Shown here piece after piece: positions 1 through 64,000 of a stretch of DNA of 64,000 bases; positions within the stretch are counted from its first letter, which is position 1; every line of letters begins with the position of its first letter. This DNA is from Gavia stellata (Eukaryota; Chordata; Aves; Gaviiformes; Gaviidae), in the NCBI RefSeq assembly GCF_030936135.1, contig NC_082596.1:372001-436000 (forward strand), read 5' to 3'. The notes below the pieces were generated by a model, which did not search any database, was not told the origin of the DNA, and was given only the letters and a program-made list of their open reading frames with translations. The translations under genes were made by a program, and so were the position numbers.

Positions 1-51
1 CTGCAGCGGGGCGGCCACGGGGCGCCTGAGCTCACCCCTGCCTTTCCCCAG

Positions 52-135
52 AAACTCCTGGAAGAGTGCGACCGCAATAAGGAGAAGGTGGAGGAGTGCC
101 AGCGCTACGCCAAGCAGTACATTGATGCCATCAAG
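52..135 (+). CDS. PLEC: PLEC exon at the end of the plakin domain
   Basis: An 84-bp phase-0 exon after a pyrimidine tract and CAG (acceptor at 50-51), ending at a GTGTGC donor. It encodes 28 residues beginning KLLEECDRNKEKVEECQRYA and ending QYIDAIK. In plectin this segment leads out of the plakin domain toward the rod. It is too short and too internal to stand as its own gene. Confidence 0.93.
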
Positions 136-3100
136 GTGTGCCCGATGGCCGTGCCAGCCCGCTCCAGGCTGGCCTCCCTGGGGGTGCCGGGGCAGACGTG
201 TGGCTGGGGAGGGGCGGCCCGGTGCCTGGCGGCCCCGAAGGGCCTGGGGGGCTTGCCGGGGATGCTGGCCAGCGTGCTGAGGACCCCTCTCCCCGGCAGG
301 ATTATGAGCTGCAGCTGGTGAGCTTCAAGGCGCAGGTGGAGCCAATGGCCTCTCCGGCCAAAAAGCCCAAAGTACAGTCTGCATCCGACAGCATCATCCA
401 GGAGGTGAGGGGGGGCCCCTCCGCGCGCAGGCCTGGGGCGCCCCACGGGTCCTGGCATGCGGCTGAGCCCGGGCAGCTCCTTCCCCAGGAGCGGAAGGCT
501 GCAGGCCTTTGCCGAAGGGGTGGGCACGGGGGGCTGGGGTGCAGGCTTGCCTCCGTCCGGCCCTGCCGCCGCTGGGCTGTGGGGCAGCTGGGCAGGGGGG
601 TGCCATGGGCCCGCACCGCCCCGCTGACCCCTGCCGTCTGCCACAGTACGTGGACTTGCGGACGCGGTACAGCGAGCTGACCACACTCACGAGCCAGTAC
701 ATCAAGTTCATCACGGAGACGCTGCGGCGGCTGGAGGAGGAGGAGGTAGGGGAGCGGCGTGCGGGCACGTGGGGTGGCATGACTCCGACTGCATTGTCTC
801 TCCTGCATAACAACGGGGAACATGGTTCATGATGACTGCCGGCCCCCCATCACTAACGCTGGCCCACGGCCTCTAACCCCGCTCTGATCTGGGCTCCTGG
901 GACCGAAGCTGCTGGCTCTGGGTGCAGCGGGTCTCCGAGCTGAGAGGGCCGGCCGGGGCGGCGTGCAGAGCCGGCTCCGGGCACCGCCGGGCTCTGGTGT
1001 GACTGGTGGTAGGAGGCACTTCCCAGATACACGTAGCGCAGTCAGCATCTGCCTTCCGCATGAACGCTGTGCTCGGGCGCCGCGGGACCGGAGCCCTCGG
1101 GTGTTCTGTCTTGGTAACCTTTCTAACTCTTGGTTTCTGCCCTTGGAAGTCGAGCCGCTTTGCCAGTGCTTTGTCTTGGGGGATGTTTGTGTTGGTGGGG
1201 ATCTAATGGAGGGTAAAAAACCAGGATGACTCTGGCACCCCTGCACCAGGTACTCACTCCGCGCATGTCCCCCTCCCCACGGCACCCCTCCGCCTCACCT
1301 CATGGCTGCCAGCAGCGTGCGCGCCCCTCCTGCCCGCTGCACCCCCGCCCTCCGGAGAGCCACTCACCCCCGCGCTCCTTGCCCTCCTCTGCCTTTGCCT
1401 CTGCTCCCGGGCCCTCGCTGCACCCCTTGGGGTGGTGCGAGGGGACCCACCCCACGGCACGGGGGTCCGGCTCACCCGCATGTGTGCTGCCCAAGCCCGG
1501 GCCCTGCACGGAGCGCGCGCCTGCCTCGCTCACGGTGCATGCGGCACGAGCGCTCTGCGGCACGGCCCCGAGCCACGCGCAAGCAGACAACTGGCTGGCC
1601 GGGTTGCCTGGAGTGGGCCAGTGAGGGGGGGTTCGGACCAGCTGGGGCAGCATGGGCCAGAGCTTGGATTGCTTTCCACGTCGTTGAGGCTTTCCCGGCG
1701 GGGAAAGCTCTGCTGGCACCTCCCTCGGCACCCACTCCCCTCTGTCCTGCTCGCCCCGGTGCTCTGGCTGGGTCTCTCATTCCCCCAAGGTGGTGGCTCT
1801 CCGCGCCGGCCCCTCTCGCACGGGGAGCCCCGGCGAGAGCGGGAGGAGGCTCCCCTCTGCGGGGGGCTGGGGCAGGGCTCTCCCCGGAGGACAGTGGGCA
1901 CGGTGGTGGTGTGCAAGCTGCTCGCATCCGTCTCCATCGCCTCTGGCTTTGCTCGCGCTCCATTCCTTCTCCGTGGTACGTGGGCCATCCCGCTTCCTGC
2001 GCTGCTGTCTCGGTCCTGTCGCCCACGCTGTGCTAAGCGACACACGGTAGTCGTGTGTCCCCTGTCTGCCATACGTCTTCTGGAAGCTGGCGTCACCGCC
2101 TCCAGCTCGTGGGGAGGCCCAGGGAGCCGAAGCCATTCCATGCGCATCCTCCACCCCTCCGCCCCGGACCGTCCCGTCTCTTGGTGGTGCGTGGTTGTGG
2201 CTGGCGTTGACGCCGCGGCTTGGTCGCATCCCTTGTGATTTCTCTCTCTCTCCCCTCTCTGTTTTCTCTGCACCCTCTTTCCCCTCCAGAAAGCCGCCGA
2301 GAAGCTGAAGGAGGAGGAGAGGAAGCGGCTGGCGGAGGTGGAGGCCCAGCTGGAGAAGCAGCGGCAGCTGGCCGAGGCCCACGCCAAAGCCAAGGCGCAG
2401 GCGGAGGCGGAGGCGCGGGAGCTGCAGCTCCGCATGCAGGAGGAGGTCACCCGGCGGGAGGTGGTGGCCGTGGATGCCGAGCAGCAGAAGCAGAACATCC
2501 AGCAGGAGCTGATGCAGCTGCGGCAGAACTCCGACCACCAGATCAAGTCCAAGGTCAAGCTGATCGAGGAGGCTGAGTACAACCGCAAGAAGGTGGAGGA
2601 GGAGATCCGCCTCATCCGCCTCCAGCTGGAGACCACCGAGAAGCAGCGGGCGGGCGCCGAGACGGAGCTGCAGGAGCTGCGGGCACGCGCCGAAGATGCC
2701 GAGCGGCAGAAGAGGCAGGCGCAGGAGGAGGCCGAGCGCCTGCGCCGGCAGGTGAAGGAGGAGAGCCAGAAGAAGCGGGAGGCGGAGGAGGAGCTGAAGC
2801 GCAAGGTGCAGGCCGAGCGGGATGCGGCGCGGGAGAAGCAGAAGGCGGTGGCCGACCTGGAGAAGCTGCGGCTGCAGGCGGAGGAGGCCGAGCGGCGGAT
2901 GCGGCAAGCGGAGGCCGAGAAGGAGCGGCAGATCCAGGTGGCCCAGGAGGTGGCCCAGCGGAGCGCAGAGGCCGAGCTGCAGAGCAAGCGGCTGTCCTTC
3001 GCCGAGAAGACGGCGCAGCTGGAGCTGTCGCTGCAGCAGGAGCACATCACGGTGGCCCACCTGCAGGAGGAGGCCGAGCGGCTGAAGAAGCAGCAGCTGG

Positions 3101-6100
3101 AGGCCGAGCAGTTGCGGGAGGAGGCCGAGAAGGAGCTGGAGCACTGGCGGCAGAAGGCCAACGAGGCGCTGCGGCTGCGGCTGCAGGCGGAGGAGGTGGC
3201 CCACAAGAAGGCGCTGGCGCAGGAGGAGGCAGAGAAGCAGAAGGAGGACGCAGAGCGGGAGGCCCGCAAGCGCGCCAAGGCGGAGGAGTCGGCCCTGCGG
3301 CAGAAGGAGCTGGCGGAGGAGGAGCTGGAGAAGCAGCGGGAGCTGGCGGAGGGCACGGCCCAGCAGAAGCTGGCGGCGGAGCAGGAGCTGATCCGGCTGA
3401 AGGCGGAGATGGAGAACAGGGAGCAGCAGCGCTTGCTCCTGGAGGAGGAGCTCTTCCGGCTGAAGAAGGAGGTGAGCGAGGCCATCCAGAAGAGGAAGGA
3501 GGTAGAGGACGAGCTGGCCAAGCTGCGGGCCGAGATGGAGATCCTTCTGGAGAGCAAGGCCAAGACGGAGGAGGAGTCGCGCTCCACCAGCGAGAAGTCC
3601 AAGCAGCGGCTGGAGGCTGAGGCCAGCAAGCTGCGGGAGCTGGCCGAGGAGGCCGCCCGGCTGCGGGCCCTCTCCGAGGAGGCCAAGAGGCAGCGGCAGC
3701 TGGCGGAGGACGAGGCCAGCCGGCAGCGGGCCGAGGCCGAGCGCATCCTGAAGGAGAAGCTGGCGGCCATCAACGAGGCCTCACGGCTGAAGGCGGAGGC
3801 GGAGATCACCCTAAAGGAGAAGGAGGCGGAAAACGAGCGGCTGCGGCGGCTGGCGGAGGACGAGGCCTACCAGCGCAAGCTGCTGGAGGAGCAGGCCGCC
3901 CAGCACAAGCAGGACATCGAGGAGAAGATCGCCCTGCTGAAGCGCTCCTCGGAGAGCGAGCTGGAGCGGCAGAAGGGCCTGGTGGAGGACACGCTGCGGC
4001 AGCGGCGCCAGGTGGAGGAGGAGATCCGTGCCCTGAAGGCCAGCTTCGAGAAGGCCTCGGCGGGCAAGACCGACCTGGAGCGGGAGCTGAGCCGCATCCG
4101 TGGGGAGGCAGAGGAGGTGCAGCGCAGCCGGGAGCAGGCCGAGCGGGAGGCTGAGCGGCAGCGGGCGCTGGCGCTGGAGGAGGAGGGCCGCCGGCGGGAG
4201 GCTGAGGAGAAGGTGCAGGCCATCCTGGCGGCCGAGGAGGAGGCCGGGCGGCAGCGGCGGCTGGCCCTGGAGGAGGTGGAGCGGCTGAAGGCCATGGTGG
4301 AGGAGGCCAGGCGGCAGAAGGAGCTGGCGGAGAAGGAGTCGGAGCGGCAGATCCAGCTGGCGCGGGAGGCGGCGCAGAAGCGGATCGCGGCGGAGGAGAA
4401 GGCCCACCTGGCCGCCGTGCAGCAGAAGGAGCAGGAGCTGCTGCAGACGCGGCAGCAGGAACAGAGCCTGCTGGACCGGCTGCGGGAGGAGGCCGAGCGG
4501 GCCAGGCGGGCGGCAGAGGAGGCCGAGTTCGCCCGCAGCAAGGCCGAGCAGGACGCCAGCCTCTCCCGGCAGCGGGTGGAGGAGGCCGAGCGGCTGAAGC
4601 AGCGGGCGGAGGAGGAGGCGCAGGCCAAGGCGCAGGCGCAGGCGGACGCGGAGAAGCTGCGGAAGGAGGCCGAGCTGGAGGCGGCAAAGCGGGCACAGGC
4701 GGAGCAGGCGGCTCTGCGGCAGAAGCAGCTGGCGGACGCTGAGATGGAGAAGCACAAGAAGTTTGCTGAGCAGACGCTGCGGCAGAAGGCGCAGGTGGAG
4801 CAGGAACTGACCAAGGTCAAGCTGCAGCTGGATGAGACAGACCACCAGAAGGGCATTCTGGATGAGGAGCTGCAGCGGCTGAAGGAGGAGGTGACGGACG
4901 CCGTCCGGCAGAAGACTCAGGTGGAGGAGGAGCTCTTCAAGGTCCGGGTGCAGATGGAGGAGCTGGCGAAGCTGAAGAGCCGGATCGAGGAGGAGAACAA
5001 GGCGCTGATCCTCAAGGACAAGGACAACACGCAGAAGTTCCTGGCGGAGGAGGCCGAGAAGATGAAGCAGGTGGCAGAGGAGGTCGCCCGGCTCAGCGTG
5101 GAGGCCCAGGAGGCCGCCCGCATGCGGAAGCTGGCCGAGGATGACCTGGCGCAGCAGCGGGCGCTGGCAGAGAAGATGCTCAAGGAGAAGATGCAGGCGG
5201 TGCAGGAGGCCACGCGGCTGAAGGCCGAGGCAGAGATGCTGCAGAAGCAGAAGGACCTGGCGCAGGAGCACGCCAAGCGGCTGCAGGAGGACAAGGAGCA
5301 GATGCAGCAGCGCCTGGCTGAGGAGACCGAGGGTTTCCAGAAAACCCTGGAGGCTGAGCGCCGGCGGCAGCTGGAGATCACGGCCGAGGCCGAGCGCCTC
5401 AAGCTGCACGTGGCGGAGATGAGCATGGCCCAGGCCAAGGCTGAGGAGGAAGCCAAGCGGTTCAAGAAGCAGGCAGAGGAGATCAGCGAGAGGCTGCACG
5501 AGACGGAGCTGGCCACGCAGGAGAAGATGACGCTGGTTCACACTCTGGAGATCCAACGGCACCAGAGCGACCAGGATGCAGACAAGCTGCGGAGGGCCAT
5601 CGCCGACCTGGAGCAGGAGAAGGAGAAGCTGAAGCAGGAGGCAGCATTGCTGCAGCAGAAGGCGGAGGAGGTACTGGGCTACGGGTCCCCCTTAGCGGTG
5701 GTGGTATGCAGGGAGGCCTTCCCTCTCCCCAGGCGCCCCACGCCGTGTCCCAGGACAGTAGGTGCGCGGCGGCTGGCCAGGCTCTGGGAGCTGTGCTGTC
5801 CGTTCCCTGAGGACCATCACTGCAGCCTGCACCCGGCGGGTGTGGGCACGGGGCTGGCTGCTGGCACCGTCCGGGAGGTGAAGGCGTCACTGAGCCTCCC
5901 ACCCCAGCATCTGTCCCCCCTGCCAGGTGTCACGGCGAGCGGCTGCTTGTGGGGCAGGACCCCCACGTGCGCAGAGCCAGCATCAGGAGTAGCGAGGCAA
6001 ACCCAGCAGGGAGGTGTCGGAGCAGGACCTCCCACCCCCTGCCCTCTCCTGCTGCGGGCAGCTCCTTCTGTGGAGGGGCAATCCCCACCACCTGTGCCGG

Positions 6101-9100
6101 CTTTTCGGCCCCGTGGCGCATCCTGCCTTATTCCTCTCCGCAGACAAGAGCCGTCCCCGGTGCCGTGCGGAGAATCCCTGACACCCGCAGAAAAGCTTGT
6201 GTCTTTTCCCTGCTCATTCCGCCCACGTGTTGTTTGCTGTGGCTCCCTAACCCCAGCTCTGCTCCCTTAACTCTTAACCGGCGTAGCAGCGTGGTTGGGT
6301 GACTCTGCACCCCTACCAGCCGGGTGCCACCCCTGTCCTCCCGCCCCAGCCCGCCCCCGCTGCCCCATGGGTGCTGCTGCCCTCCTGGGCGGACAGTGCC
6401 ATCTGACCGTGCTGTCTGTCCTCTCTCCCACCCCAGATGCAGGTGGCTCAGCAGGCGCAGCTCCGCCAGGAGACACAGCTCCTGCAGCAGACCTTCCTGA
6501 CGGAGAAGGACGCCCTGCTGCAGAAGGAGAAGTTCATCGAGGAGGAGAAAACAAAGCTGGAGAAGCTCTTCAAAGACGAGGTGAACAAAGCCCAGAACCT
6601 GAAGGCAGAGCAGGAGCGGCAGCAGAAGGAGATGGAGCAGGAGAAGCAGCAGCTGAAAGCCATGCTGGACGAAGCCAAGAAGCATCAGCAAGAAGCAGAG
6701 GAAAACGTCCGGCACAAGCAGGAGGAGCTGCAGCAGCTGGAGAGACAGCGGCAGCAGCAGGAGAAACTCCTGGAAGAGGAGAACAAGAAGCTCAGGGAGA
6801 GACTTGAGCAGATGCAGGAAGAGTACAAGGCCGCCCTGGCACAGACACGAGAGATCATGATCCAGACGGACGACCTGCCCGAGGAGACTACGGTTACGAT
6901 GACGCAGCTGCCAGATATCAAAGCTGTGCCCAATGGCAGAGACGCGGTGGATGGCTTAGCGCAGAATGGGGAGCCGGAGTTTGCATTTGATGGCATCCGT
7001 CAGAAGGTATCTGCAGAGAAGCTGGCTGATGCTGGCATTTTGAGCAAGGAGAACTTGGACAAGTTGGTGAAGGGTGTTGTGAGTGTTAGCGAGCTCTCGC
7101 AGAGGGAAGACGTCAAGAAGTACCTGCAGGGCAAGAGCAGCATCGCCGGTTTGTTAATCAAACCCAGTAATCAAAAGATGAGCATCTATGAAGCCATGAA
7201 GAAGAAGCTGCTCAGCCCAGGCACCGCGCTGGTCCTCCTGGAAGCGCAGGCTGCCTCTGGCTTCATAATTGACCCTGTGAGAAACGCGAGGCTCTCGGTG
7301 AATGAGGCGGTGAGAGAGGGAGTGATTGGGCCAGAACTGCACAATAAGATGCTGTCTGCTGAACGGGCAGTAACCGGCTACAAGGATCCTTACACGGGCG
7401 ACAAGATCTCCCTCTTCCAGGCCATGACGAAGGAGCTCATCGTCAGGGAGCACGGCATCCGCCTGCTCGAGGCCCAGATCGCCACCGGCGGCATCATCGA
7501 TCCCGTCAACAGCCACCGCCTGCCTGTAGAAGTTGCCTACAAGCGTGGCTACTTTGACCAGGAGATGAACCAGATCCTCTCTGACCCCACCGACGACACC
7601 AAGGGCTTCTTCGACCCCAACACACAGGAGAACCTCACCTACCTGCAGCTCATGGAGCGGTGCGTGACTGACCCGGACACAGGGCTGTGCCTCCTGCCAC
7701 TCACTGACCAGGCGGCCAAAGCAAGAGAGATGGTCTACACCGACAAAGAAGCTAAGGATGTCTTTAAGAAGGCCACAGTGACGGCACCATTTGGCAAGTT
7801 CCAAGGGAAGACGGTGACCATCTGGGAGATCATCAACTCTGAATATTTCACTGAGGACCAAAGGCGGGACCTGATCCAGCAGTACAGGACTGGCAAGATC
7901 ACGGTGGAGAAGATCATTAAGATCATCATCACGGTTGTGGAGGAAAGCGAGAAAAAGAGACAGATGTGCTTCGAGGGCCTCCGGGCCCCCGTGCCTGCTG
8001 CTGAGCTGCTGGAAAGCAAAATCATCGACAAGGACCTCTACAACCAACTACACCAGGGCAAGAAGTCTGTGAAGGACGTGACGGAGATGGAGTCTGTGCG
8101 GCAGTACCTGAAGGGCACGGATGCCATTGCCGGCGTCCTAGTGGAGTCGACCGGCCAGAAGCTCACCTTCTACGACGCCCTGAAGAGAAACCTGCTGAAG
8201 CCAGAGATTGCCTTGTCCCTGCTGGAAGCACAGGCTGCCACTGGCTACATCATTGACCCCGTGAGGAACAAGCTGTTCTCTGTTGACGAGGCAGTGAAGG
8301 CTGAGGTGGTCGGGCCCGAGTTTCACGAGAAGCTGCTGTCCGCAGAGAAGGCGGTGACTGGCTACAAGGATCCATATACGGGCCAGACAGTTTCCCTCTT
8401 CCAAGCGCTCAAGAAGGGCCTCATCCCCAGCGATACAGGGGTCCGTCTGCTGGATGTCCAGCTCGCCACTGGAGGCATCATCGATCCTGTGAACAGCCAC
8501 CGGCTCCCACTCGAGGTCGCCTACAAGCGGGGCTACTTCAACCCAGAGATAAATGAGGCTCTGGCTGATCTTCAAGATGATGCCAAGGCTTTCTATTGTC
8601 CGAACACCCAAGAGCACCTCACCTACGCCCAGTTGCAGAAGAATTGCCACCGTGACAAGCAGACTGGCTTCTGCCTGCTGCCTCTGTCAGACAAAGCCAT
8701 CCAGTCGCAGCAGGAGGAGGTCTACACAGACAGCCAGGCGAAGGAGTGCTTTGACAAGGCGACCGTAGAGGTCCCGGTGGGCAGCATGAAGGGCCAGACA
8801 ATGACCATCTGGGAGCTGATCCACTCCGAGTACTTCACGGAGGAGCACAGGCGGGAGCTCCTCCGACAGTACAAGACTGGCAAGGTGACCATCGAGAAGA
8901 TCATCAAGATCGTGATCACCATTATTGAGGAGGCAGAGACCAAAAAGAAAGAGAAGCTGACGTTCAGCGGTCTCCGGGCACCTGTACCCGCCAGCGAGCT
9001 GGTGGAGTCCCGCATCATCAGCAAAGCCCAGTACGAGCAGCTGAAGGAAGGCAAGAAATCGGTGAAGGACCTCTCCGAGACAGATGCAGTGAGGAGATTC

Positions 9101-12100
9101 CTGCATGGCAACGACTGCATTGCTGGCGTCTACGTGGAGGCGACCAAGGAGAAGCTGAACATCTACGAGGCCATGAAGAGGAACCTGCTGAGGCCCAGCA
9201 CCGCCGTGGTCCTCCTGGAGGCCCAGGCAGCGACTGGGTTCTTGATCGACCCTGTGAAGAACCGGAAACTGTATGTCAACGAGGCTGTGAAGGCTGGTGT
9301 CGTCGGGCCTGAACTGCACGAGAAGCTGCTGTCTGCCGAGAAGGCTGTCACTGGTTACAAGGACCCCTACTCGGGCAACACCATCTCCCTCTTCCAGGCC
9401 ATGAAGAAAGGACTCATTGTCAAGGAGCACGGCATCCGCCTGCTTGAGGCCCAGATCGCCACCGGCGGCATCATCGACCCCGTCAACAGCCACCGCCTTC
9501 CCTTGGAGGTGGCCTACAAGCGGGGATACTTCGACGAGGAGATGAACCGGACCCTCTCCGACCCCACCGACGACACCAAGGGCTTCTTCGACCCCAACAC
9601 CCACGAGAACCTCACCTACACGCAGCTGAAGGAGAAGTGCATCGAGGATCCCGAGACGGGCCTGTACCTGCTGCCTCTGCGGGAGCCTGAGAAGCCTGCA
9701 GTGGTGGAGACCACCCAGGTGTACACGGAGGCAGAGACGCGGAAGGTGTTTGAGGAGACACAGGTGAACATCCCCGTGGGCAGCAGGGCGGGCTCCTCCA
9801 TGTCGCTGTGGGAGATCATGCACTCGGACCTGCTGCCCGAGGAGCAACGGAAGCAGCTCATGGAAGAGTTCCAGTCGGGCCGTGTGTCCAAGGAGCGCAT
9901 GATCATCATCATCATTGAGATCATTGAGAAGACTGAGATCATTAGGCAGCAGAATCTCACGTCCTATGACTACGTCCGGCGCCGCATCACGGCCGAGGAC
10001 CTCTACGAGGCCAAGATCATCTCTGTAGACATCTACAACCTGCTGAAGCAGGGCTCCAAAACCTTCCGGGAGCTCCTGGACGTGGAAACTGTCTGGAAGT
10101 ACCTCTATGGGTCGGGCTGTGTGGCCGGCATCTACATCCCCTCTTCCAAGCAGAAGCTCAGTATCTACCAGGCACTGAAGAAGGGGCTGATCAACTCTGA
10201 AGTGGCCCGCTCCCTCCTGGAGGCCCAGGCTGCCACCGGTTTCATGATCGACCCCACAAAGAATGAGATGCTGACTGTCGATGAAGCAGTCAGGAAAGGC
10301 GTGGTGGGGCCTGAAATCCACGACCGGCTCCTGTCCGCAGAGAGGGCCGTGACCGGTTACAGAGACCCATACAGTGAACAGAAGATTTCCATCTTCCAGG
10401 CCATGAAGAAAGACCTCATTCCCAGTGAAGAGGCCCTCAAGCTCCTGGATGCCCAAATCGCCACCGGTGGCATCATCGACCCGCACCTGGGCTTCCATCT
10501 GCCCCTGGAGGTGGCCTACCAGCGGGGCTTCATCAACAAGGACACGTACGACATGCTCTCCGAGCCCAGCGAGGTGCGAAGCTACGTGGATCCGTCCACG
10601 GAGGAGAAGCTCAGCTACACGCAGCTCCTGAAGCGGTGCCGGAAGGACGAGAACAGCGGGCTCCTCCTGCTCCCACTCTGCGACACGAGGAAGCTCACCT
10701 TCCGGGGACTGCGGAAGCAGATCACCGTGGAGGAGCTGGTCCGTTCGCAAGTGATGGACGAAGCCACTGCCCAGCGCCTCCAGGAGGGCCTCACCTCCAT
10801 CGAGGAGGTCTCCAAGAACCTGAAGAAGTTCCTGGAGGGCACCAGCTGCATTGCTGGCGTCTTTGTGGACTCCACAAAGGAGCGGCTGTCTGTGTACCAG
10901 GCCATGAAGAAGGGCATCATCAGGCCAGGCACCGCGTTCGAGCTCCTGGAGGCGCAGGCAGCCACGGGGTACGTGATTGACCCCATCAAGGGCCTCAAGC
11001 TGACAGTGGAGGAAGCTGTGCGGATGGGCATTGTGGGCCCCGAGTTCAAGGACAAGCTGCTCTCTGCTGAGAGGGCGGTCACCGGCTACCGGGATCCCTA
11101 CTCCGGAAAGCTCATCTCCCTCTTCCAGGCCATGAAGAAGGGTCTGATCCTGAAGGACCACGGGATCCGCTTGCTCGAGGCCCAGATTGCAACAGGAGGC
11201 ATAATCGATCCCGAGGAGAGCCACCGCCTCCCTGTGGAAATGGCCTACAAGAGGGGCCTCTTCGACGAGGAGATGAATGAGATCCTGCTGGATCCTAGCG
11301 ATGACACCAAGGGCTTCTTCGACCCGAACACGGAGGAGAACCTAACCTACCTGCAGCTCATGGAGCGGTGCATCACTGACCCAGAGACTGGCCTCTGCCT
11401 CCTGCCCCTGAAGGAGAAGAAGCGGGAGAGGAAGACCTCCTCCAAGTCCTCCGTCCGCAAGCGCAGGGTGGTGATCGTCGACCCAGAGACAGGCAAGGAG
11501 ATGTCTGTGTACGAAGCCTATCGCAAGGGCCTCATCGACCACCAGACCTACTTGGAGCTGTCGGAGCAGGAGTGTGAGTGGGAGGAGATCACCACCTCCT
11601 CCTCTGACGGTGTGGTGAAGTCAATGATCATCGACAGGCGCTCAGGCCGCCAGTACGACATCGACGATGCCATCAGCAAGGGCCTGATTGACCAGTCGGC
11701 CCTGGACCAGTACCGCTCGGGCACCCTCTCCATCACCGAGTTTGCAGACATGCTCTCCGGCAACATGAGTGGCTTCCGGTCACGGTCATCCTCCGTGGGA
11801 TCCTCCTCCTCCTACACCGTCAGCCCGGCCCCCACACGAACGCAGATATCCATGTGGAGCGACCCGACCGAGGAGACCGGGCCGGTGGCGGGCATCCTGG
11901 ACACGGACACTCTGGAGAAGGTGTCCATCACAGAGGCGATGCGCCGCAACCTCGTGGATAACATCACGGGGCAGAGGCTGCTGGAAGCCCAGGCCTGCAC
12001 CGGGGGCATCATCGACCCCAACACCGGGGATAAGTGCTCCGTCGCTGACGCGGTGAACAAGGGCCTGGTCGACAAAATCATGGTGGACCGCATCAACCTG

Positions 12101-12766
12101 GCGCAGAAGGCCTTCTATGGCTTCGAGGACCCACGGACCAAGACGAAGATGTCGGCAGCCCAGGCCCTGAAGAAGGGCTGGCTGTACTACGAGGCCGGGC
12201 AGCGCTTCCTGGAGGTGCAGTACCTGACGGGGGGCCTGATCGAGCCCGACGTCGAGGGCCGCGTCTCCTTGGACGAGGCGCTGCAGAAGGGCACCATTGA
12301 CACGCGCACAGCCCAGAAGTTGCGGGACGTGAACACCTACTCCAAGTATCTCACCTGCCCCAAAACCAAGCTCAAGATCTCCTACAAGGACGCGATGGAC
12401 CGAAGCATGATCGAGGACGGGACCGGCCTGCGGCTGCTGGAGGCCTCCTCCCAGTCCAGCAAGGGCTACTACAGCCCCTACAACGTCAGCAGCGCCGGCT
12501 CCACCTCCGGCTCGCGGTCGGGCTCCCGGACTGGGTCCCGGTCGGGCTCCAGGCGAGGTAGCTTCGACGCCACCGGCTCCGGCTTCTCCATGACCTTCTC
12601 TTCCTCCTCCTACTCTTCCTCGAGCTTTGGGCGCAGATATGCCGTAGGTCCCCAGAGCACCGTGGAGGCGGCCGCCCTCGCCTTGTCTCTCCTGAGCAGG
12701 AGCTGCGGGCGGGAGGCGAGTGGGGAGCGCCCCGGGCTGCGCGGGCCCCCGCTCCGCGTGGCCTGA
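52..12766 (+). CDS. PLEC: Plectin, 3' half (five exons; 5' end outside window)
   Basis: Cytolinker that crosslinks intermediate filaments to actin, microtubules and junctions. The visible coding exons are 52-135, 300-404, 647-745, 2290-5670 and 6437-12766. All have AG/GT borders and all are multiples of three, so the frame is phase 0 throughout. The order is end of the plakin domain, coiled-coil rod, six plakin-repeat domains and a GSR-rich tail, which is the plectin layout. Signature strings include ASPAKKPKVQS, YVDLRTRYSELTTLTSQYIK and RRGSFDATGSGFSMTFSSSS. The actin-binding CH domains and most of the plakin domain lie upstream of the window. The stop codon is TGA at 12764-12766. The C-terminus runs about 30 residues past where I remember mammalian plectin ending. 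Identity is very secure; only the species is uncertain. Confidence 0.98.
300..404 (+). CDS. PLEC: PLEC exon, plakin-domain to rod transition
   Basis: A 105-bp phase-0 exon (acceptor CCCCGGCAG, donor GTGAGG) encoding 35 residues: DYELQLVSFKAQVEP followed by the well-conserved ASPAKKPKVQSASDSIIQE. The proline/lysine-rich segment is diagnostic of plectin and precedes the start of the coiled coil. Confidence 0.95.
647..745 (+). CDS. PLEC: PLEC exon, start of the rod coiled coil
   Basis: A 99-bp phase-0 exon (acceptor CTGCCACAG, donor GTAGGG) encoding YVDLRTRYSELTTLTSQYIK and then a Glu-rich end. It immediately precedes the giant rod exon. Because it ends in phase 0 and the terminal exon starts in phase 0, skipping of the rod exon (the known rodless plectin isoform of mammals) would stay in frame here too. 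Confidence 0.95.
746..2289 (+). other. PLEC intron before the rod exon
   Basis: A 1544-bp intron with a GTAGGG donor and a long C/T tract (about 2240-2288) before the acceptor. I see no conserved exon, RNA gene or repeat. Long open frames on both strands here are by-products of high GC. Confidence 0.8.
2290..5670 (+). CDS. PLEC: PLEC giant rod exon (coiled coil)
   Basis: A single 3381-bp exon (1127 codons, phase 0 at both ends), starting KAAEKLKEEERKRLAEVEAQ and ending just before a GTACTG donor. The whole exon is a heptad-patterned, Glu/Arg/Lys/Ala/Gln-rich dimerising coiled coil with repeated motifs such as EEAERLRR, RQRQLAE and EKMKQVAEE. It corresponds to the rod exon (exon 31 in mammals), which is alternatively skipped to give rodless plectin. 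Codon third positions are overwhelmingly G or C, so both strands and all frames look artificially open. Confidence 0.98.
5671..6436 (+). other. PLEC intron between the rod exon and the terminal exon
   Basis: A 766-bp intron with a GTACTG donor and an acceptor after CTCTCTCCCACCCCAG. The rod reading frame happens to stay open for another 200 codons into it, to a stop at 6268-6270. The translated intron loses the heptad pattern and becomes Pro/Gly/Cys-rich, so it is not coding in the normal mRNA. Confidence 0.9.
6437..12766 (+). CDS. PLEC: PLEC giant terminal exon: rod end, six PRDs, GSR tail
   Basis: A 6330-bp exon with 2109 codons before the stop. About 140 residues finish the coiled coil (6437-6860). 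Six plakin-repeat domains follow, opening with an (I/V)AG(V/I/L) box near 7137, 8119, 9112, 10105, 10846 and 11881. Each has the LLEAQAATG / GPE..KLLSAE(K/R)AVTGY / LLEAQIATGGIIDP pattern and ends in LLPL. The segment between PRD5 and PRD6 (about 11425-11850, RKTSSKSSVRKRR onward) corresponds to the known intermediate-filament-binding region. The tail (about 12490-12640) has GSR repeats, as in microtubule-binding tails of plakins, and RRGSFDATG, whose serine corresponds to a known kinase target in mammalian plectin. Confidence 0.98.
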   Translation: MQVAQQAQLRQETQLLQQTFLTEKDALLQKEKFIEEEKTKLEKLFKDEVNKAQNLKAEQERQQKEMEQEKQQLKAMLDEAKKHQQEAEENVRHKQEELQQLERQRQQQEKLLEEENKKLRERLEQMQEEYKAALAQTREIMIQTDDLPEETTVTMTQLPDIKAVPNGRDAVDGLAQNGEPEFAFDGIRQKVSAEKLADAGILSKENLDKLVKGVVSVSELSQREDVKKYLQGKSSIAGLLIKPSNQKMSIYEAMKKKLLSPGTALVLLEAQAASGFIIDPVRNARLSVNEAVREGVIGPELHNKMLSAERAVTGYKDPYTGDKISLFQAMTKELIVREHGIRLLEAQIATGGIIDPVNSHRLPVEVAYKRGYFDQEMNQILSDPTDDTKGFFDPNTQENLTYLQLMERCVTDPDTGLCLLPLTDQAAKAREMVYTDKEAKDVFKKATVTAPFGKFQGKTVTIWEIINSEYFTEDQRRDLIQQYRTGKITVEKIIKIIITVVEESEKKRQMCFEGLRAPVPAAELLESKIIDKDLYNQLHQGKKSVKDVTEMESVRQYLKGTDAIAGVLVESTGQKLTFYDALKRNLLKPEIALSLLEAQAATGYIIDPVRNKLFSVDEAVKAEVVGPEFHEKLLSAEKAVTGYKDPYTGQTVSLFQALKKGLIPSDTGVRLLDVQLATGGIIDPVNSHRLPLEVAYKRGYFNPEINEALADLQDDAKAFYCPNTQEHLTYAQLQKNCHRDKQTGFCLLPLSDKAIQSQQEEVYTDSQAKECFDKATVEVPVGSMKGQTMTIWELIHSEYFTEEHRRELLRQYKTGKVTIEKIIKIVITIIEEAETKKKEKLTFSGLRAPVPASELVESRIISKAQYEQLKEGKKSVKDLSETDAVRRFLHGNDCIAGVYVEATKEKLNIYEAMKRNLLRPSTAVVLLEAQAATGFLIDPVKNRKLYVNEAVKAGVVGPELHEKLLSAEKAVTGYKDPYSGNTISLFQAMKKGLIVKEHGIRLLEAQIATGGIIDPVNSHRLPLEVAYKRGYFDEEMNRTLSDPTDDTKGFFDPNTHENLTYTQLKEKCIEDPETGLYLLPLREPEKPAVVETTQVYTEAETRKVFEETQVNIPVGSRAGSSMSLWEIMHSDLLPEEQRKQLMEEFQSGRVSKERMIIIIIEIIEKTEIIRQQNLTSYDYVRRRITAEDLYEAKIISVDIYNLLKQGSKTFRELLDVETVWKYLYGSGCVAGIYIPSSKQKLSIYQALKKGLINSEVARSLLEAQAATGFMIDPTKNEMLTVDEAVRKGVVGPEIHDRLLSAERAVTGYRDPYSEQKISIFQAMKKDLIPSEEALKLLDAQIATGGIIDPHLGFHLPLEVAYQRGFINKDTYDMLSEPSEVRSYVDPSTEEKLSYTQLLKRCRKDENSGLLLLPLCDTRKLTFRGLRKQITVEELVRSQVMDEATAQRLQEGLTSIEEVSKNLKKFLEGTSCIAGVFVDSTKERLSVYQAMKKGIIRPGTAFELLEAQAATGYVIDPIKGLKLTVEEAVRMGIVGPEFKDKLLSAERAVTGYRDPYSGKLISLFQAMKKGLILKDHGIRLLEAQIATGGIIDPEESHRLPVEMAYKRGLFDEEMNEILLDPSDDTKGFFDPNTEENLTYLQLMERCITDPETGLCLLPLKEKKRERKTSSKSSVRKRRVVIVDPETGKEMSVYEAYRKGLIDHQTYLELSEQECEWEEITTSSSDGVVKSMIIDRRSGRQYDIDDAISKGLIDQSALDQYRSGTLSITEFADMLSGNMSGFRSRSSSVGSSSSYTVSPAPTRTQISMWSDPTEETGPVAGILDTDTLEKVSITEAMRRNLVDNITGQRLLEAQACTGGIIDPNTGDKCSVADAVNKGLVDKIMVDRINLAQKAFYGFEDPRTKTKMSAAQALKKGWLYYEAGQRFLEVQYLTGGLIEPDVEGRVSLDEALQKGTIDTRTAQKLRDVNTYSKYLTCPKTKLKISYKDAMDRSMIEDGTGLRLLEASSQSSKGYYSPYNVSSAGSTSGSRSGSRTGSRSGSRRGSFDATGSGFSMTFSSSSYSSSSFGRRYAVGPQSTVEAAALALSLLSRSCGREASGERPGLRGPPLRVA
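7137..7710 (+). other. PLEC: PLEC plakin-repeat domain 1
   Basis: Globular module of tandem 38-residue plakin repeats, opening SSIAGLLIKPSNQKMSIYEA and closing CLLPL. Its second half (about 7405-7640) is very similar in DNA sequence to PRD3 (about 9390-9640) and to one domain of the downstream EPPK1 gene. Confidence 0.9.
11425..11850 (+). other. PLEC: PLEC intermediate-filament-binding linker between PRD5 and PRD6
   Basis: Basic strip RKTSSKSSVRKRRVVIVDP followed by a PRD-like segment (GKEMSVYEAYRKGLIDHQ) and a Ser-rich stretch SRSSSVGSSSSY. By family knowledge this is where plectin binds vimentin, desmin and keratins. It is the best-conserved part of the exon compared with mammalian plectin as I remember it. 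Confidence 0.88.
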
Positions 12767-13150
12767 AACCTGCCAGCCCCTTCCCGAGGAACCCGCCGCC
12801 TCACCTGCTCCGCATGTGGCAACGCTGCTGGCTAATCACTAGTATTTTTTTTAATTTTTAAACTCCATTCTTCTTCCAAAGCAGTGCCTAAAGTTTAACC
12901 AAAAAGACTAGACTAATATATTAATATATACGATTGTTCTGACAGTATTTGTATATTAAGAGATGAGAGAGAAAACACACTACCCTCCCAGATCTGCCGC
13001 CCCGGGAACCTGCTGCTGTTCCTGCCCTCTGCAGAGCCGATCCCGCCCAGCTGCTCGGACATGGCGAGGCAGAGCTGGAAAACAGGAAAACAGTTCCGCC
13101 TTTTTGATCTAACCACTTAGCGACTCTTTTGTAATTAACCCTGCCGGCTT
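12767..13150 (+). other. PLEC: PLEC 3' UTR (at least this far)
   Basis: After the TGA the composition flips to AT-rich (T-run at 12844-12852, TAATATATTAATATATA around 12915), which contrasts sharply with the GC-rich surroundings and fits a conserved 3' UTR. I found no canonical AATAAA up to about 15500, so the cleavage site is unknown. A further AT-richer stretch at 13700-13760 may still belong to the UTR. Confidence 0.6.
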
Positions 13151-14101
13151 CATCCCCCACACCCCGAAGGAGGAGATGACCCTGTCCCCGCTGCGCACCG
13201 ACCCTGTCCCCGTGGCACACCGCAGCCGGCGTGCCGGCAGGACAGAAGAGGACATCGCGGGCTCCCTGCCGCTCGGCACTGGACAGCCAGACCCTCCGCA
13301 CCGGCCCTGGAGCTGTCGCCTGGACCCCTTCCACCTTGCCCTCAGTGCGGCGTGGCGAGGAGGGGGCTGTGCGCCCCAGCTCCTGAGCTGCCCCAGCATC
13401 CTGGCTTGGCCTCCCGGCACATCCCCACCACCACGCCGTGGAGCTGGTGCCCCAACCGTAAGTGCGCGCTGGCGCTGCCCGGTGCTTCTGCGCCGTGCGG
13501 AGGGACCTGCCTCCGCTCCGCCGCTTCGCCCGCCGAGGGGCTTCGCTGCGTGTCCACCGCCGCCTCCGCCAGCCCGCCCGCCCGCTGGGACGCACCCGCC
13601 GCGCTTGGCTCTCCCCGCCCGCGTGGCTCGTGTCGCCGCTAGCCGGCAGCCGCGCCTGCCGCTGCCTGTCTGTCTGTCTGTCTGCCTCTCCGTGTATCTG
13701 GGAAGTGCTCCGCACAAGGTTGATTTCTTAACGCTGACGTGGCTTAATGAATTGACAGGCGTCCGCCAGAGCCCGCGCCCGAGCTCGGCAGAGCCTGCGC
13801 TGCCAAAGCCAGCCCGGCTCTGCGTGCGGTTCCTGCGCCCAGACCCCAGCCGCTGCCCAGCCACGCGCCCCCCCCTCGCCACGGAGGTTCTCCAGACCCT
13901 CTTGAGGGGCGCAGAGGCCGCAGGACCCTCCGTGCGCAGGGGGGGTCGTGGGACGCTGCAGCAGCCCGGCGTGCTCTCTTGTTAGAAAAAAGGCGGATCT
14001 CTGTAAAACCGGACTCCTCTTTTCTTCCTCGTGGTAATTCCTTTCCTCTTGGTTTTCCTCTCCTTCCCTTCACCCGCAATAACGCGCTCTCTCTCTGGCA
14101 G
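13151..14101 (+). other. Region downstream of the PLEC stop, no gene recognised
   Basis: GC-rich sequence with a short CTGT tetranucleotide run at about 13664-13685 and an AT-richer pocket at 13710-13760. It may be distal PLEC 3' UTR. It ends in a strong pyrimidine tract (14030-14099) leading into the candidate exon at 14102. Confidence 0.5.
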
Positions 14102-27435: not shown

Positions 27436-27505
27436 GCAGGTGCAGGCACGCAGGGGATGCAGTGCGTGGCCGGGCCCGGGGCAGGCACAGCCCGGGGCAG
27501 GGTCG

Positions 27506-27597: not shown

Positions 27598-27599
27598 AG

Positions 27600-60279: not shown

Positions 60280-63200
60280 ATGGAGAGCAAGCCAGCAGTG
60301 AATGGCCATGCTGCCCCCATCTCTCACCAGGAGGACATGCCAGGAGCAAACTGCTTGTGCCGGGACGTACTGCCTTGCAAACAGAAAAAAGCAGCTGATG
60401 GGGATGTGATGGTGCTGGATGCTTCTAGTGAGCCCTCGGAGGCAGCTGGCAGCATTGCTGGAGTGTATGTGGAGGCTTCTAAGAAGATAATGAGCTTTTA
60501 TGATGCCACCAGAGAGCACCTTCTGAGTTTGGATTCGGCACTCTGTCTTCTCGAGGCCCAGGCAGCCACGGGCTTCATCACTGACCCGGTGAAGAACAGG
60601 CGTGTGTCTGTAGCAGAAGCCACGCAGCTGGGACTGGTGGGGCTGGAGCTGAAGGAGAGGCTGCTCTCTGCAGAGAAAGCTGCTACTGGCTTTGCGGACC
60701 CCTACACAGAAGAGAAAATCTCCCTCTACCAGGCCATCCAGAAGGACCTGATCGGGAGGGAGCAAGGTATTCGGCTGCTAGAGGCCCAGATTGCAACCGG
60801 AGGCATCATTGACCCAGCCACCGGCTGCCGGCTCCCCCCAGATGTTGCCTGTGAGAGGGGATATTTAAATGAAGAGATGAGACAGCTCCTCTCTGACCCC
60901 AGCAATGAGGACAGCAAAGGGTTCCTCAACCCCAGTACTATGGAGAGGGTCACTTATATGGAGCTTGTAAAGAGGTGTGTCGTTGATCCGGCCTCAGGCT
61001 TCCTCCTCTTGCCCCTGCAAATCACGTTCCCAGGGCTGGGAGGGAGGGTGAGCAGCAGGGATCTGCTGGACGCTGGCATCATCAGCCCTGACACGTTCAG
61101 AGGTCTTGAGGAGGGAAGAGTTTCTGCCCAGGAGGTAGCAGAGGACAACTCTGTACAGCAGTTCCTGCACGGGACAAGGAGCGTGGCTGGTGTTGTCCTG
61201 CCTTCCAGTGAGCGGAAGAGCCTTTACCAGGCACTGAGAGAGCATCTCCTCGTGCCTGGTGCTGCTCTGATGCTCCTGCAAGTCCAGGCCTCCACCGGCA
61301 GCCTGACGGACCCCATAAAGAACAAAAGCTACTCAGTTGATGAGGCTGTCAGGGTTGGTCTCATCGGCCCAGAGCTTCATGAGAAACTGTCTTCAGCTGA
61401 GAGGTCCATCACTGGATACAGGGATCCCTACACTGGAGAAATGCTCTCTCTGTTCCAAGCCATCAGGAAGGGCTTTATCCCCAAGGATCATGGCATTTGC
61501 CTTCTGGAGGCCCAGATGGCCACGGGGGGTATAATTGCTCCAGGCAGGCACCTCCGTGTCCCCACAGAGACAGCTTGCAAGTGGGGGTACCTGGATGAGG
61601 CCACAAGACAGCTCCTCTCCAGTCCTACCGATGACATGAAAGGGTTCTTCGACCCCAGCTCCAAGGAGAAGATGATCTATGCAGACCTGCTCAAGCATTG
61701 TGTCACTGATCCCAAAACGGGGCTCCTTCTGCTGCCACTTGCTGGAGAAAGCAGAGAAGGATCCGAGGGAACCCACCTCTTCTTTGACCATAGGACCCAG
61801 ACAGCTCTGGAAAACACACAGGTACCCATTGGTTTAGGTAAATTCAAGGGAAAGTCGGTGTCTCTCTGGAAACTCCTCTTCTCAGACTACATCCAGGGTG
61901 AGCGAAGAGCTGCTCTCACCCAGCAGTACCTTGCAGGAACGCTCTCTACACAAGAACTGGGTAAGGCAGTCAGTGCCACCATTGAGGAAATGGCTTCCAC
62001 TGCTAATGTCACCTTTGAAGGACTGAGGGACCAGGTGACAGCTGACCAGCTCCTGAGCTCTGAAATCATCAACAAAGATTTGTTTAAGAAACTGAAGGAG
62101 GGAGAAACATCAGCCAAAGAAGTTGTCAGCATGGACACTGTCAAAAAGTACCTGCAAGGAACAGGTAGCATTGGTGGGCTCCTGCTTCCTGACTCCCAGG
62201 AGAAGATCAGCATCTACCAGGCAAAGCGGAAAGGACTCTTAAGGCCAGGAACATCACTGATCCTTCTGGAGGCACAGGCTGCTACTGGATTTATCATTGA
62301 CCCAGCTGCCAACAAAAGGTATTCTGTGGATGAGGCATTAAGAGCGAACGTCATTGGCCCAGATGTTTATGATAAGCTACTGACTGCAGAGAAATCAGTC
62401 ACCGGCTACAGAGATCCTTACTCAGGAAACAAGATCTCCCTCTTCCAGGCCATGAAGAAGGAGCTCATCGTCAAGGAGCACGCTATCCGCCTGCTCGAGG
62501 CCCAGATCGCCACCGGCGGCATCATCGACCCCGTCAACAGCCACCGCATCCCTGTGGAGGTGGCCTACCGGCGCGGCTACTTCGACAAGAAGGTGAACTT
62601 AATCCTTTCTGATCCCACCGACGACACCAAGGGCTTCTTCGACCCCAACACCCACGAGAACCTCACCTACCTGCAGCTGAAGGAGAAGTGCATCACAGAG
62701 TCCTCCACTGGGCTCTGCCTCCTTCCTCTGAACAGCAGGAAGCGCCAGTTCATTGATGACACCACCAGACGGGTGTTCAGGAGCTCCTGGCTGCCGGTCA
62801 GGTTTGGGCGGTTACGGGGGGAGAAGGTCTCTGTGTGGGACTTGCTGAACTCCGAGTACTTCAGCGAGGGGAGGCGCCGGGAGATATTCAACCACTACCA
62901 GCTGAGGAAGCTCACCCTGGAGCAAATCCGGATCATGTTGGAGGAGGAAATGAAAAAATGGGCCCCCATCAAATTCCCAGCCATGAGAGGCAGCGTCAGC
63001 GCTTACCACCTGATGGAAACAGGTGTCATTGACAAGGCCCTGTTTGAGAAGGTGTTGGAGGGATCCGTCACACCGGAGGAAGTCCTGCGCATGGACTCTG
63101 TCAGAAAGTACCTCTATGGCTCTGGCAGCATTGGGGGGATTGTACTCCAGCCGTCAAACCAGAGGATAAGCATTTATGAGGCCATGAAGAAAAACATTGT

Positions 63201-64000
63201 GGTACCAGGAGTAGCCCTCCCACTGCTAGAGGCCCAGGCTGCCACAGGCTTCATCATTGACCCAGTCAACAACCAGAAACTCTGTGTGGATGACGCCATC
63301 AAGGAGGGAGTCATTGGGCCAGAAGTCCATGAGAAGCTGCAGCATGCAGAAGGGGCTGTAACAGGCTATAAAGATCCTTTCACAGGCAAGAAGATACCCC
63401 TCTTCCAGGCGATGAAGAAGGGCCTGATTCCTGACAAACAGGCCATGCAGTTGATGGAGGTGCAGATGGCTACAGGAGGCATCATTGACCCAACATGTGG
63501 CCACCATATCCCCATAGAATCTGCCCAGAAGCGAGGGTGCCTGGATGAGGACACAAGCAAGGCCCTTTCTAAGCCCAGTGACAACAGAGCCTTCTGCACC
63601 CCAGACAGCAAAGAGACCGTCACCTATGCCGAGCTAATCAAGCGCTGCCAGAAGGACGAGATCTCTGGCTTCCACTTGCTGCCTCTGCCACAGACAGCTG
63701 CTCCTGCCTACACCGACGAACAAATCCAACGGATTTTTAAGGAAACTGTGGTGAAGGAAAAAGGGGTCTCCCTCTGGGACCTAATCCACTCTGGGTATTT
63801 CACTGAGGAGCAGAGGAGCGACTTCATGGAGAGGTTCAGGTCTGAGGAAATGCCACTGCAGCAGCTGGTTGCTCTTGTGTTCAGACTGGTTGGGGAGATG
63901 GAAATGAAAGCCTGCACGCACATCACCCTGGAAGGCTTGCGGGGCAGTGTCCCTGCAGTCTGGCTGCTGGATGCTGGCATCATTACTGAGAAGACATTTG
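60280..64000 (+). CDS. EPPK1: Epiplakin, N-terminal part (runs off the window)
   Basis: The acceptor CTCTCTCCAG at 60247 leads into the large coding exon. The ATG at 60280 opens a frame of 1240 codons with no stop before 64000. Protein: a short N-terminus (MESKPAVNGHAAP), then four plakin-repeat domains opening AGSIAGVYVEAS (about 60450), SVAGVVLPSS (about 61180), SIGGLLLPDS (about 62165) and SIGGIVLQPS (about 63125). There is no coiled coil, CH or plakin domain: only PRDs and linkers, which is unique to epiplakin. The position directly downstream of PLEC in the same orientation matches the human order. Epiplakin binds keratin and other intermediate filaments. Codons are less GC-biased than in PLEC except for 62425-62690. 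Confidence 0.95.
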   Translation, partial: MESKPAVNGHAAPISHQEDMPGANCLCRDVLPCKQKKAADGDVMVLDASSEPSEAAGSIAGVYVEASKKIMSFYDATREHLLSLDSALCLLEAQAATGFITDPVKNRRVSVAEATQLGLVGLELKERLLSAEKAATGFADPYTEEKISLYQAIQKDLIGREQGIRLLEAQIATGGIIDPATGCRLPPDVACERGYLNEEMRQLLSDPSNEDSKGFLNPSTMERVTYMELVKRCVVDPASGFLLLPLQITFPGLGGRVSSRDLLDAGIISPDTFRGLEEGRVSAQEVAEDNSVQQFLHGTRSVAGVVLPSSERKSLYQALREHLLVPGAALMLLQVQASTGSLTDPIKNKSYSVDEAVRVGLIGPELHEKLSSAERSITGYRDPYTGEMLSLFQAIRKGFIPKDHGICLLEAQMATGGIIAPGRHLRVPTETACKWGYLDEATRQLLSSPTDDMKGFFDPSSKEKMIYADLLKHCVTDPKTGLLLLPLAGESREGSEGTHLFFDHRTQTALENTQVPIGLGKFKGKSVSLWKLLFSDYIQGERRAALTQQYLAGTLSTQELGKAVSATIEEMASTANVTFEGLRDQVTADQLLSSEIINKDLFKKLKEGETSAKEVVSMDTVKKYLQGTGSIGGLLLPDSQEKISIYQAKRKGLLRPGTSLILLEAQAATGFIIDPAANKRYSVDEALRANVIGPDVYDKLLTAEKSVTGYRDPYSGNKISLFQAMKKELIVKEHAIRLLEAQIATGGIIDPVNSHRIPVEVAYRRGYFDKKVNLILSDPTDDTKGFFDPNTHENLTYLQLKEKCITESSTGLCLLPLNSRKRQFIDDTTRRVFRSSWLPVRFGRLRGEKVSVWDLLNSEYFSEGRRREIFNHYQLRKLTLEQIRIMLEEEMKKWAPIKFPAMRGSVSAYHLMETGVIDKALFEKVLEGSVTPEEVLRMDSVRKYLYGSGSIGGIVLQPSNQRISIYEAMKKNIVVPGVALPLLEAQAATGFIIDPVNNQKLCVDDAIKEGVIGPEVHEKLQHAEGAVTGYKDPFTGKKIPLFQAMKKGLIPDKQAMQLMEVQMATGGIIDPTCGHHIPIESAQKRGCLDEDTSKALSKPSDNRAFCTPDSKETVTYAELIKRCQKDEISGFHLLPLPQTAAPAYTDEQIQRIFKETVVKEKGVSLWDLIHSGYFTEEQRSDFMERFRSEEMPLQQLVALVFRLVGEMEMKACTHITLEGLRGSVPAVWLLDAGIITEKTF
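60450..61020 (+). other. EPPK1: EPPK1 plakin-repeat domain 1
   Basis: About residues 57-247. It has LLEAQAATGFITDP, GLVGLELKERLLSAEKAATG and LLEAQIATGGIIDP and closes FLLLPLQ. The VGLELKE variant (instead of VGPEL.EK) is shared with the first PRD of human epiplakin as I remember it, which supports the start being near the true N-terminus. Confidence 0.85.
61756..62110 (+). other. EPPK1: EPPK1 inter-PRD linker with plectin-like sequence
   Basis: Between PRD2 and PRD3 the sequence GKFKGKSVSLWKLLFSDYI mirrors the plectin linker GKFQGKTVTIWEIINSEYF (about 7795-7850), followed by a matching TFEGLRDQVTADQLLSSEII segment. This shows that whole PRD-plus-linker units, not just PRDs, were copied between the two genes. 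Confidence 0.85.
62425..62690 (+). other. EPPK1: PLEC-like GC-rich tract inside EPPK1 PRD3
   Basis: Two long exact matches to PLEC PRD3: 62497-62547 equals 9446-9496 (51 bp) and 62614-62670 equals 9563-9619 (57 bp), with high similarity between and around them. The third codon positions shift abruptly to G/C compared with the flanking EPPK1 sequence. This is the signature expected of gene conversion from PLEC. Confidence 0.85.

What the first reader, a model, noticed from the sequence alone, without database searches (positions are those of the whole stretch)
1..64000. A split spectraplakin locus: PLEC, a stand-alone spectrin-EF-GAS2 gene and EPPK1 in tandem
Seen: in one orientation, PLEC (rod plus PRDs) is followed by a gene with only the C-terminal half of a MACF1/dystonin-type protein, then by EPPK1 (PRDs only). 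Established: the invertebrate spectraplakin (Drosophila Shot) and vertebrate MACF1/DST carry CH, plakin, optional PRDs, spectrin repeats, EF-hands and GAS2 in this order, while plectin lacks the spectrin-EF-GAS2 half. Inference: the middle gene is plectin's missing half, left in place after the ancestral third spectraplakin gene was divided and given a new internal promoter. If so, this lineage keeps a third microtubule-binding spectraplakin tail that may have been lost or overlooked in mammals.
Basis: partly seen in the sequence, partly recalled or inferred. Interest (0 to 1): 0.93.

Follow-up and report, generated by a model that had tools for sequence, protein, structure and literature searches.

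The report
Split-off tail gene beside plectin
Between the plectin and epiplakin genes of this bird-sized genome lies a separate gene for only the microtubule-binding half of a giant cytoskeletal linker; such a gene was described in 2022, and what is added here is evidence that it may start from an old internal promoter still present inside its two full-length relatives.

Summary
On the + strand the window carries two plectin exons, a gene model with 38 coding exons for spectrin repeats, two EF hands and a GAS2 domain, and the start of epiplakin. [quoted passage not shown] It is not a recent MACF1 or DST copy: against MACF1 and DST of the same genome it is equidistant (79 versus 89 shared sites, against 454 shared by MACF1 and DST), and topology tests reject placing it inside either clade (two of five rows are recalled human sequence, which also guided the alignment). 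MACF1 and DST in this genome each have an internal start exon (MGKPLSRPDCL...) with CpG-rich DNA 0.8-1.8 kb upstream, placed before the repeats this gene keeps. The gene has a similar layout, with [11 protein letters not shown]. Most likely the third vertebrate spectraplakin came apart at an existing internal promoter and lost the spectrin exons in between. The start-exon similarity is short (7 of 11 residues, a stretch chosen after seeing it), and no RNA was examined.

The parts
2290..5670 (+). PLEC coiled-coil rod exon (phase-0 donor GAG|GTACTG)
   Evidence: Open frame 2239-6267 and junctions; the rod was not successfully matched to a Pfam family (0 families), so the PLEC label rests on the adjoining plakin-repeat exon and recall
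6437..12766 (+). PLEC last exon: plakin repeats and GSR tail, stop at 12766; AATATA (weak poly(A) variant) at 12915 and 12923
   Evidence: Pfam Plectin 20 stretches, E 5.5e-301
12767..27200 (.). Spacer in which no plakin, spectrin or other domain was recognised; minisatellites at 24194-24958 and 26694-27436
   Evidence: No tblastn match of PLEC repeats, EPPK1 or the middle gene at E<0.01 in 12801-29900; 20 of 28 + strand ORFs of 150 aa or more in 12767-29921 scanned, 0 Pfam families
27460..28960 (+). CpG island (GC 0.70-0.89, o/e 0.81-1.17): inferred promoter of the middle gene
28156..28179 (+). End of the inferred untranslated first exon, holding a short upstream ORF; donor GGG|GTGAGT at 28180
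   Evidence: transcription start not determined
29921..30516 (+). Exon 2: acceptor TTTCAG, ATG 29962 in gccATGg, [15 protein letters not shown]... (myristoylation-type N-terminus)
   Evidence: similarity to MACF1/DST internal start exons
31200..46812 (+). Spectrin-repeat exons of the middle gene
   Evidence: Gene model; Pfam Spectrin 1.3e-96; collinear with MACF1 and DST matches
47260..47814 (+). Two EF hands (loops [24 protein letters not shown])
   Evidence: PDB 5ve9_A MACF1 6.1e-37; loops
47897..48454 (+). GAS2 domain
   Evidence: PDB 5x57 2.4e-40, 5ve9_C 1.1e-37; Pfam GAS2 2e-29
48716..49387 (+). C-terminal tail exons; the last exon is uncertain; no exact SxIP and no GSR in the modelled frame, one SLLP (SxLP variant)
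50239..50244 (+). Poly(A) signal AATAAA
60280..64000 (+). EPPK1, 5' part of its long open frame (continues beyond the window)
   Evidence: (11 Plectin-repeat stretches, 9.3e-170)

Best explanation
The middle gene is very likely the orthologue of MACF1CTL, the C-terminal transcription unit of the third vertebrate spectraplakin, whose N-terminal unit is plectin. Shown from sequence: a spectrin-rod/EF/GAS2 gene model with no stop inside it, its own CpG island, and equidistance from MACF1 and DST. Inferred: the ancestral gene, like MACF1 and DST in this genome, had an internal CpG-rich promoter and a start exon (MG...SRP.CL) in front of the last half of the spectrin rod. After the spectrin exons between the plakin-repeat exon and that promoter were lost, PLEC ended at the plakin repeats and the tail went on as a separate gene. 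Inferred mode of action: an N-myristoylated, non-actin-binding microtubule linker. The N-terminus tethers it to membrane, the spectrin rod spaces and scaffolds, and the Ca2+-binding EF pair and GAS2 domain bind the microtubule lattice. No CH domain or plakin repeats were found in it, and no exact SxIP in the modelled tail.
For: Domains and best PDB relatives: MACF1 EF and GAS2 chains. Own genome: all 45 matches listed for the C-terminal 1159 aa of the model lie on the window's C3 locus, C2 and C29 (E<=0.001; 40 of 111 candidates scored). Site patterns with own MACF1 and DST: 525 shared by all, MACF1=DST 454, gene=DST 89, gene=MACF1 79, none 256; AU p 6.4e-6 and 3.1e-82 against nesting with own MACF1 or own DST (recalled human rows in the tree and as alignment guide). 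Exon structure: 29 of 37 junctions fall at DST match edges, 1 crossed, 7 without a match; MACF1 24, 7 and 6; random positions give means of 7.1 and 6.6 and none of 5000 draws reaches either count. Internal start exons at C29:3209050 and C2:85398165, 7 of the first 11 residues shared (27 and 57 of 200,000 shuffles with MG held reach it). CpG-rich DNA upstream in all three. Both start exons lie after plakin-repeat exons (C29:3.171-3.175 Mb, C2:85.346-85.354 Mb) and after spectrin matches (C29:3.182, 3.194-3.196; C2:85.370, 85.390-85.391 Mb), and before the first matched exon of the retained half (C29:3215709; C2:85406922).
Against: No RNA was examined. The gene's exon 2 found neither the MACF1 nor the DST start exon in a genome search at E up to 10; the similarity is confined to the N-terminus, the 11-residue stretch was chosen after seeing it, and by gapped local alignment 60 (MACF1) and 67 (DST) of 20,000 shuffles reach it (1 of 5000 against the recalled human exon). 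MACF1's surroundings are CpG-rich in general, so its stretch is less distinct than DST's. For MACF1 and DST an untranslated first exon was not established: the best donors inside their CpG-rich stretches are mediocre. CpG islands could have arisen independently. One and a half or more repeats of MACF1/DST are missing from the model around 32.9-34.2 kb, lost or missed. The gene's branch is long (1.15 versus stems of 0.19 and 0.20), so its position as outgroup is not proven without an invertebrate root. The reading frame is intact partly by construction, since the exon script forbids stops.
Confidence: 0.68

Rival explanations
1. PLEC and the middle gene are still one gene: long transcripts skip the plakin-repeat exon and splice PLEC's rod to the spectrin exons, as isoforms of DST do (recalled); the CpG island is only an alternative promoter.
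For: Phases allow it: PLEC's rod exon ends in phase 0 and exon 31200 begins in phase 0, as do 30 of 38 coding exons. GenBank's zebra finch model joins PLEC and MACF1CTL exons (passage).
Against: Own CpG island, likely untranslated exon and strong start codon; 18.4 kb from the PLEC stop to exon 31200 with no linking domain exon recognised; a gene-prediction join is not evidence of a transcript.
Confidence: 0.15
2. The gene is a segmental duplicate of the MACF1 or DST 3' half that landed between PLEC and EPPK1.
For: Best PDB matches are to MACF1; exon edges are shared.
Against: Equal distance to both and rejection of nested positions; identity 41.8 and 41.9% in the spectrin part against 66.5% between MACF1 and DST. 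A duplication older than the MACF1-DST split is not excluded by this, but then the neighbourhood with PLEC would be coincidence.
Confidence: 0.1
3. The split created a new promoter; the MG...SRP.CL start is convergent on a lipid-anchoring N-terminus.
For: Exon 2 beyond the first residues has no recognised match to the MACF1/DST start exons.
Against: Seven of eleven residues, CpG-rich DNA upstream of the ATG exon, and the same place relative to the retained repeats in all three genes.
Confidence: 0.27

Closest known systems
MACF1CTL (PMC8782857, Sci Rep 2022;12:1112; passages and one section read)
   Same: Position between PLEC and EPPK1, and spectrin repeats + EF hand + GAS2; the gene-fission hypothesis was put forward there
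   Different: That paper's main text has no mention of a promoter or CpG island (0 occurrences) and says gene products need study; here an exon model, CpG island, start exon and possible counterparts in MACF1/DST are given
MACF1 and DST C-terminal halves
   Same: Collinear spectrin rod, EF pair, GAS2; most exon junctions; internal start exon with CpG-rich DNA upstream
   Different: About 42% identity in the rod; no CH, plakin or plakin-repeat part found; no exact SxIP and no GSR in the modelled tail
GAS2 and GAS2-like proteins
   Same: GAS2 domain (1v5r, 1.2e-11)
   Different: Spectrin rod and EF hands; no CH domain found

Membership tests
[quoted passage not shown]
   same strand as both
MACF1CTL | Spectrin repeats, EF hand and GAS2 domain, no CH or plakin repeats | tested here: met
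MACF1CTL | Orthology to the published genes by sequence | not tested
   I had no copy of the published sequences; orthology rests on position and domains
Spectraplakin (full-length MACF1/DST type) | CH domains and plakin domain in the same protein | tested here: not met
   Pfam on the joined protein shows none
Spectraplakin (full-length MACF1/DST type) | Spectrin rod, EF and GAS2 C-terminal half | tested here: met
Spectraplakin tail | Canonical Ca2+ ligands in both EF loops | tested here: met
   [12 protein letters not shown] and [12 protein letters not shown]; canonical pattern recalled
Spectraplakin tail | GAS2 zinc-site residues (CxC and DPC) | tested here: inconclusive
   CNC and DPCR are present; that these are the zinc ligands is recalled, as the source paper was not held
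EB1-binding (+TIP) spectraplakin | SxIP motif in the tail | tested here: inconclusive
   No exact SxIP in the modelled frame; one SLLP there at 49034 (SxLP variant); SLIP at 48702 and SPIP at 49576 lie outside the modelled frame; last exon uncertain
N-myristoylated protein | MGxxxS start | tested here: met
   MGNSVS; consensus recalled; modification itself not testable here

The most novel reading that the evidence does not exclude
All three vertebrate spectraplakin loci share an ancient internal CpG-island promoter and lipid-anchor start exon that makes a short, actin-free, microtubule-binding form. In the PLEC lineage this unit became a free-standing gene, so gene fission happened along a pre-existing promoter rather than by inventing one, and placental mammals lost the resulting third tail.
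Probability: 0.58. Interest if true: 0.6.

Novelty: already known. Interest (0 to 1): 0.42.

Why it matters
The gene and its likely origin are in print. The added point would explain how a giant gene can be cut in two without a new promoter, predicts which part of the rod is kept, and points to a short form of MACF1 and DST whose N-terminus looks lipid-anchored. It can be tested with transcript-start data.

Tried and rejected
Recent duplicate of MACF1 or DST: rejected by site patterns and topology tests. Remnants of lost repeats in the spacer: none found by tblastn or Pfam on 20 of 28 ORFs; the genome-wide Spectrin scan listed none there, but it scored 150 of 244 candidates and cut its list. 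DST-type micro-exon FFLGNQ (recalled): no match with up to one mismatch. RNA genes: no Rfam match at gathering thresholds, no tRNA by ARAGORN. Rooting on the GAS2 domain with GAS2 (1v5r): of 8 usable differences between this gene and MACF1, the outgroup agrees with the gene at 3 and with MACF1 at 2, so no verdict. Genome pattern search for the start motif: my pattern was written wrongly and the result says nothing. Literature on an internal MACF1/DST promoter: searches listed no paper whose title or abstract start describes one; passages read: PMC8012552 says mouse Macf1 has three transcription starts and that MACF1-4 lacks the actin-binding domain and has 8 plectin repeats instead, so my recalled label 'MACF1 isoform 4' for the MGKPLSRP start is not confirmed; PMC9365387 mentions differing first exons of Dst isoforms 1-3 only; MGKPLSRP occurs in no held paper. 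The first chain of own MACF1 exons missed the EF exons; they were then read directly but are not in the tree.

Full report
What is there. On the + strand the window holds two PLEC exons (2290-5670 coiled coil; 6437-12766 plakin repeats), a gene model with 38 coding exons (first coding exon from 29921, coding 29962 to 49387, AATAAA at 50239) and the 5' part of EPPK1 (first ATG 60280). The model came from a self-trained splice-site and codon script that forbids stops; by hand one exon end was moved and one exon added; its last exon is uncertain. It is supported by Pfam on 2036 aa of the model (Spectrin 1.3e-96, GAS2 2e-29, EF hand 2.5e-9), by PDB sequences (MACF1 EF 6.1e-37, MACF1 GAS2 2.4e-40) and by collinear matches to two other loci of the same genome.

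It is already described. PMC8782857 (Sci Rep 2022; [quoted passage not shown] A search for that name found only this paper (1 paper). The paper notes that GenBank joined PLEC and MACF1CTL in zebra finch and that gene products remain to be studied; its main text has no mention of a promoter or CpG island.

The genome. The window is C3:372001-436000 of a 1.32-Gb assembly. Size and composition suggest a bird; this is inference and no name is given.

Relationship to MACF1 and DST. For the C-terminal 1159 aa of the model all 45 listed matches lie on the window locus, C29 (3.194-3.242 Mb) and C2 (85.390-85.461 Mb) (40 of 111 candidates scored). C29 is MACF1 by its EF exons, which read like the PDB MACF1 chain, and by its identity to recalled human MACF1. 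C2 is called DST by its identity to recalled human DST. The own-genome rows were placed on an alignment built with the recalled human sequences and kept only where they locally agree with them; they cover 1832 of 2147 and 1915 of 2172 positions. Over the 1403 columns that hold letters in all three own-genome rows, 525 are identical in all, 454 have MACF1=DST, 89 gene=DST, 79 gene=MACF1 and 256 differ in all. The same count with recalled human rows gave 678, 544, 106, 101 and 322. At sites fixed differently in MACF1 and DST (own and recalled human agreeing), the gene agrees with MACF1 at 57, with DST at 63 and with neither at 144. The five-row tree puts the gene outside both clades, and positions next to own MACF1 or own DST are rejected (AU 6.4e-6 and 3.1e-82). 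Own MACF1 EF exons were missing from that alignment. Without an invertebrate root the gene's place as sister of both is likely but not shown; its branch is long (1.15). PMC9145010 (passages) derives the human-like plakin from the common ancestor of tunicates and vertebrates and puts the DST/MACF1 duplication later, which fits.

Gene structure. Of 37 junctions in the gene, 29 fall within 6 residues of edges of DST matches, 1 is crossed by a match and 7 have no match; for MACF1 the numbers are 24, 7 and 6. Random positions give 7.1 and 6.6 on average, and 0 of 5000 draws reach the observed counts. The gene therefore shares exon structure with MACF1 and DST and is not a processed copy.

The promoter. 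The only place in the window where 1-kb CpG o/e reaches 0.9 is the island at about 27.46-28.96 kb (24 of 1260 windows, contiguous). It holds the best donor of the region (28180). The next exon starts behind a good acceptor at 29921 and opens with gccATGg and [12 protein letters not shown]. Searching the genome with a recalled human MACF1 internal start exon found C29:3209050 (82%, E 4.7e-104) and C2:85398165 (55%, E 3.4e-45), both from residue 1; two further rows had E above 1. Both read MGKPLSRPDCLRQN in this genome. Both lie after the plakin-repeat exons and after spectrin matches (C29:3.182 and 3.194-3.196 Mb; C2:85.370 and 85.390-85.391 Mb), and before the first matched exons of the half of the rod that the middle gene keeps (C29:3215709; C2:85406922). 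CpG-rich stretches lie upstream of all three start codons: MACF1 -1800 to -800 (GC 0.80-0.88, o/e 0.77-0.89, in a CpG-rich neighbourhood), DST -1564 to -815 (GC 0.65-0.78, o/e 0.92-1.02, in a neighbourhood of GC 0.33-0.49), middle gene about -2500 to -1000. Clear untranslated first exons were not found for MACF1 and DST. The gene shares 7 of the first 11 residues with each; with MG held fixed, 27 (MACF1) and 57 (DST) of 200,000 shuffles do as well, and by gapped local alignment 60 and 67 of 20,000. The 11-residue stretch was chosen after seeing the alignment. Against this: the gene's own exon 2 did not find the other two in a genome search, and nothing after the N-terminus aligns convincingly. 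I read this as an inherited internal promoter and start exon, with moderate confidence.

How it most likely works. Inferred from anatomy: lipid-anchored N-terminus, spectrin rod spacer, Ca2+-responsive EF pair with canonical loops, GAS2 domain with CNC and DPCR; no CH domain found and no exact SxIP in the modelled frame, though one SLLP. That would make it a membrane-to-microtubule linker of the MACF1/DST kind without actin or intermediate-filament binding. None of this was tested by experiment.

Spacer. Between the PLEC stop and the CpG island no domain was recognised, so the spectrin exons that MACF1 and DST have between plakin repeats and internal start are gone or unrecognisable here. A PLEC-to-31200 splice would be in frame, so fused transcripts remain possible.

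Verdict.

Noticed in passing
L038 (C3:465401-468001), beyond the window: About 20 kb after EPPK1's last listed plakin repeat, on the same strand, a plakin-repeat module lies near the start of a 2591-aa open frame: apparently a second epiplakin-like gene.
   Followed up: partly
C3:439354-447342, beyond the window: EPPK1's 5073-aa frame holds seven plakin-repeat matches with identical scores, spaced about 1.3 kb apart, suggesting recent homogenisation of units.
   Followed up: no
24194-24958 and 26694-27436: Minisatellites (19-157-bp units; 16-bp unit about 46 times) just upstream of the CpG island.
   Followed up: no
28156-28179: The inferred untranslated first exon ends in an ATG frame (MDARLRRG) that would meet a stop soon after the splice to 29921: a possible upstream ORF.
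   Followed up: no
30319-30516: Exon 2 ends in a TEV-rich stretch ([20 protein letters not shown]) with no convincing counterpart in the fetched parts of MACF1 or DST.
   Followed up: partly
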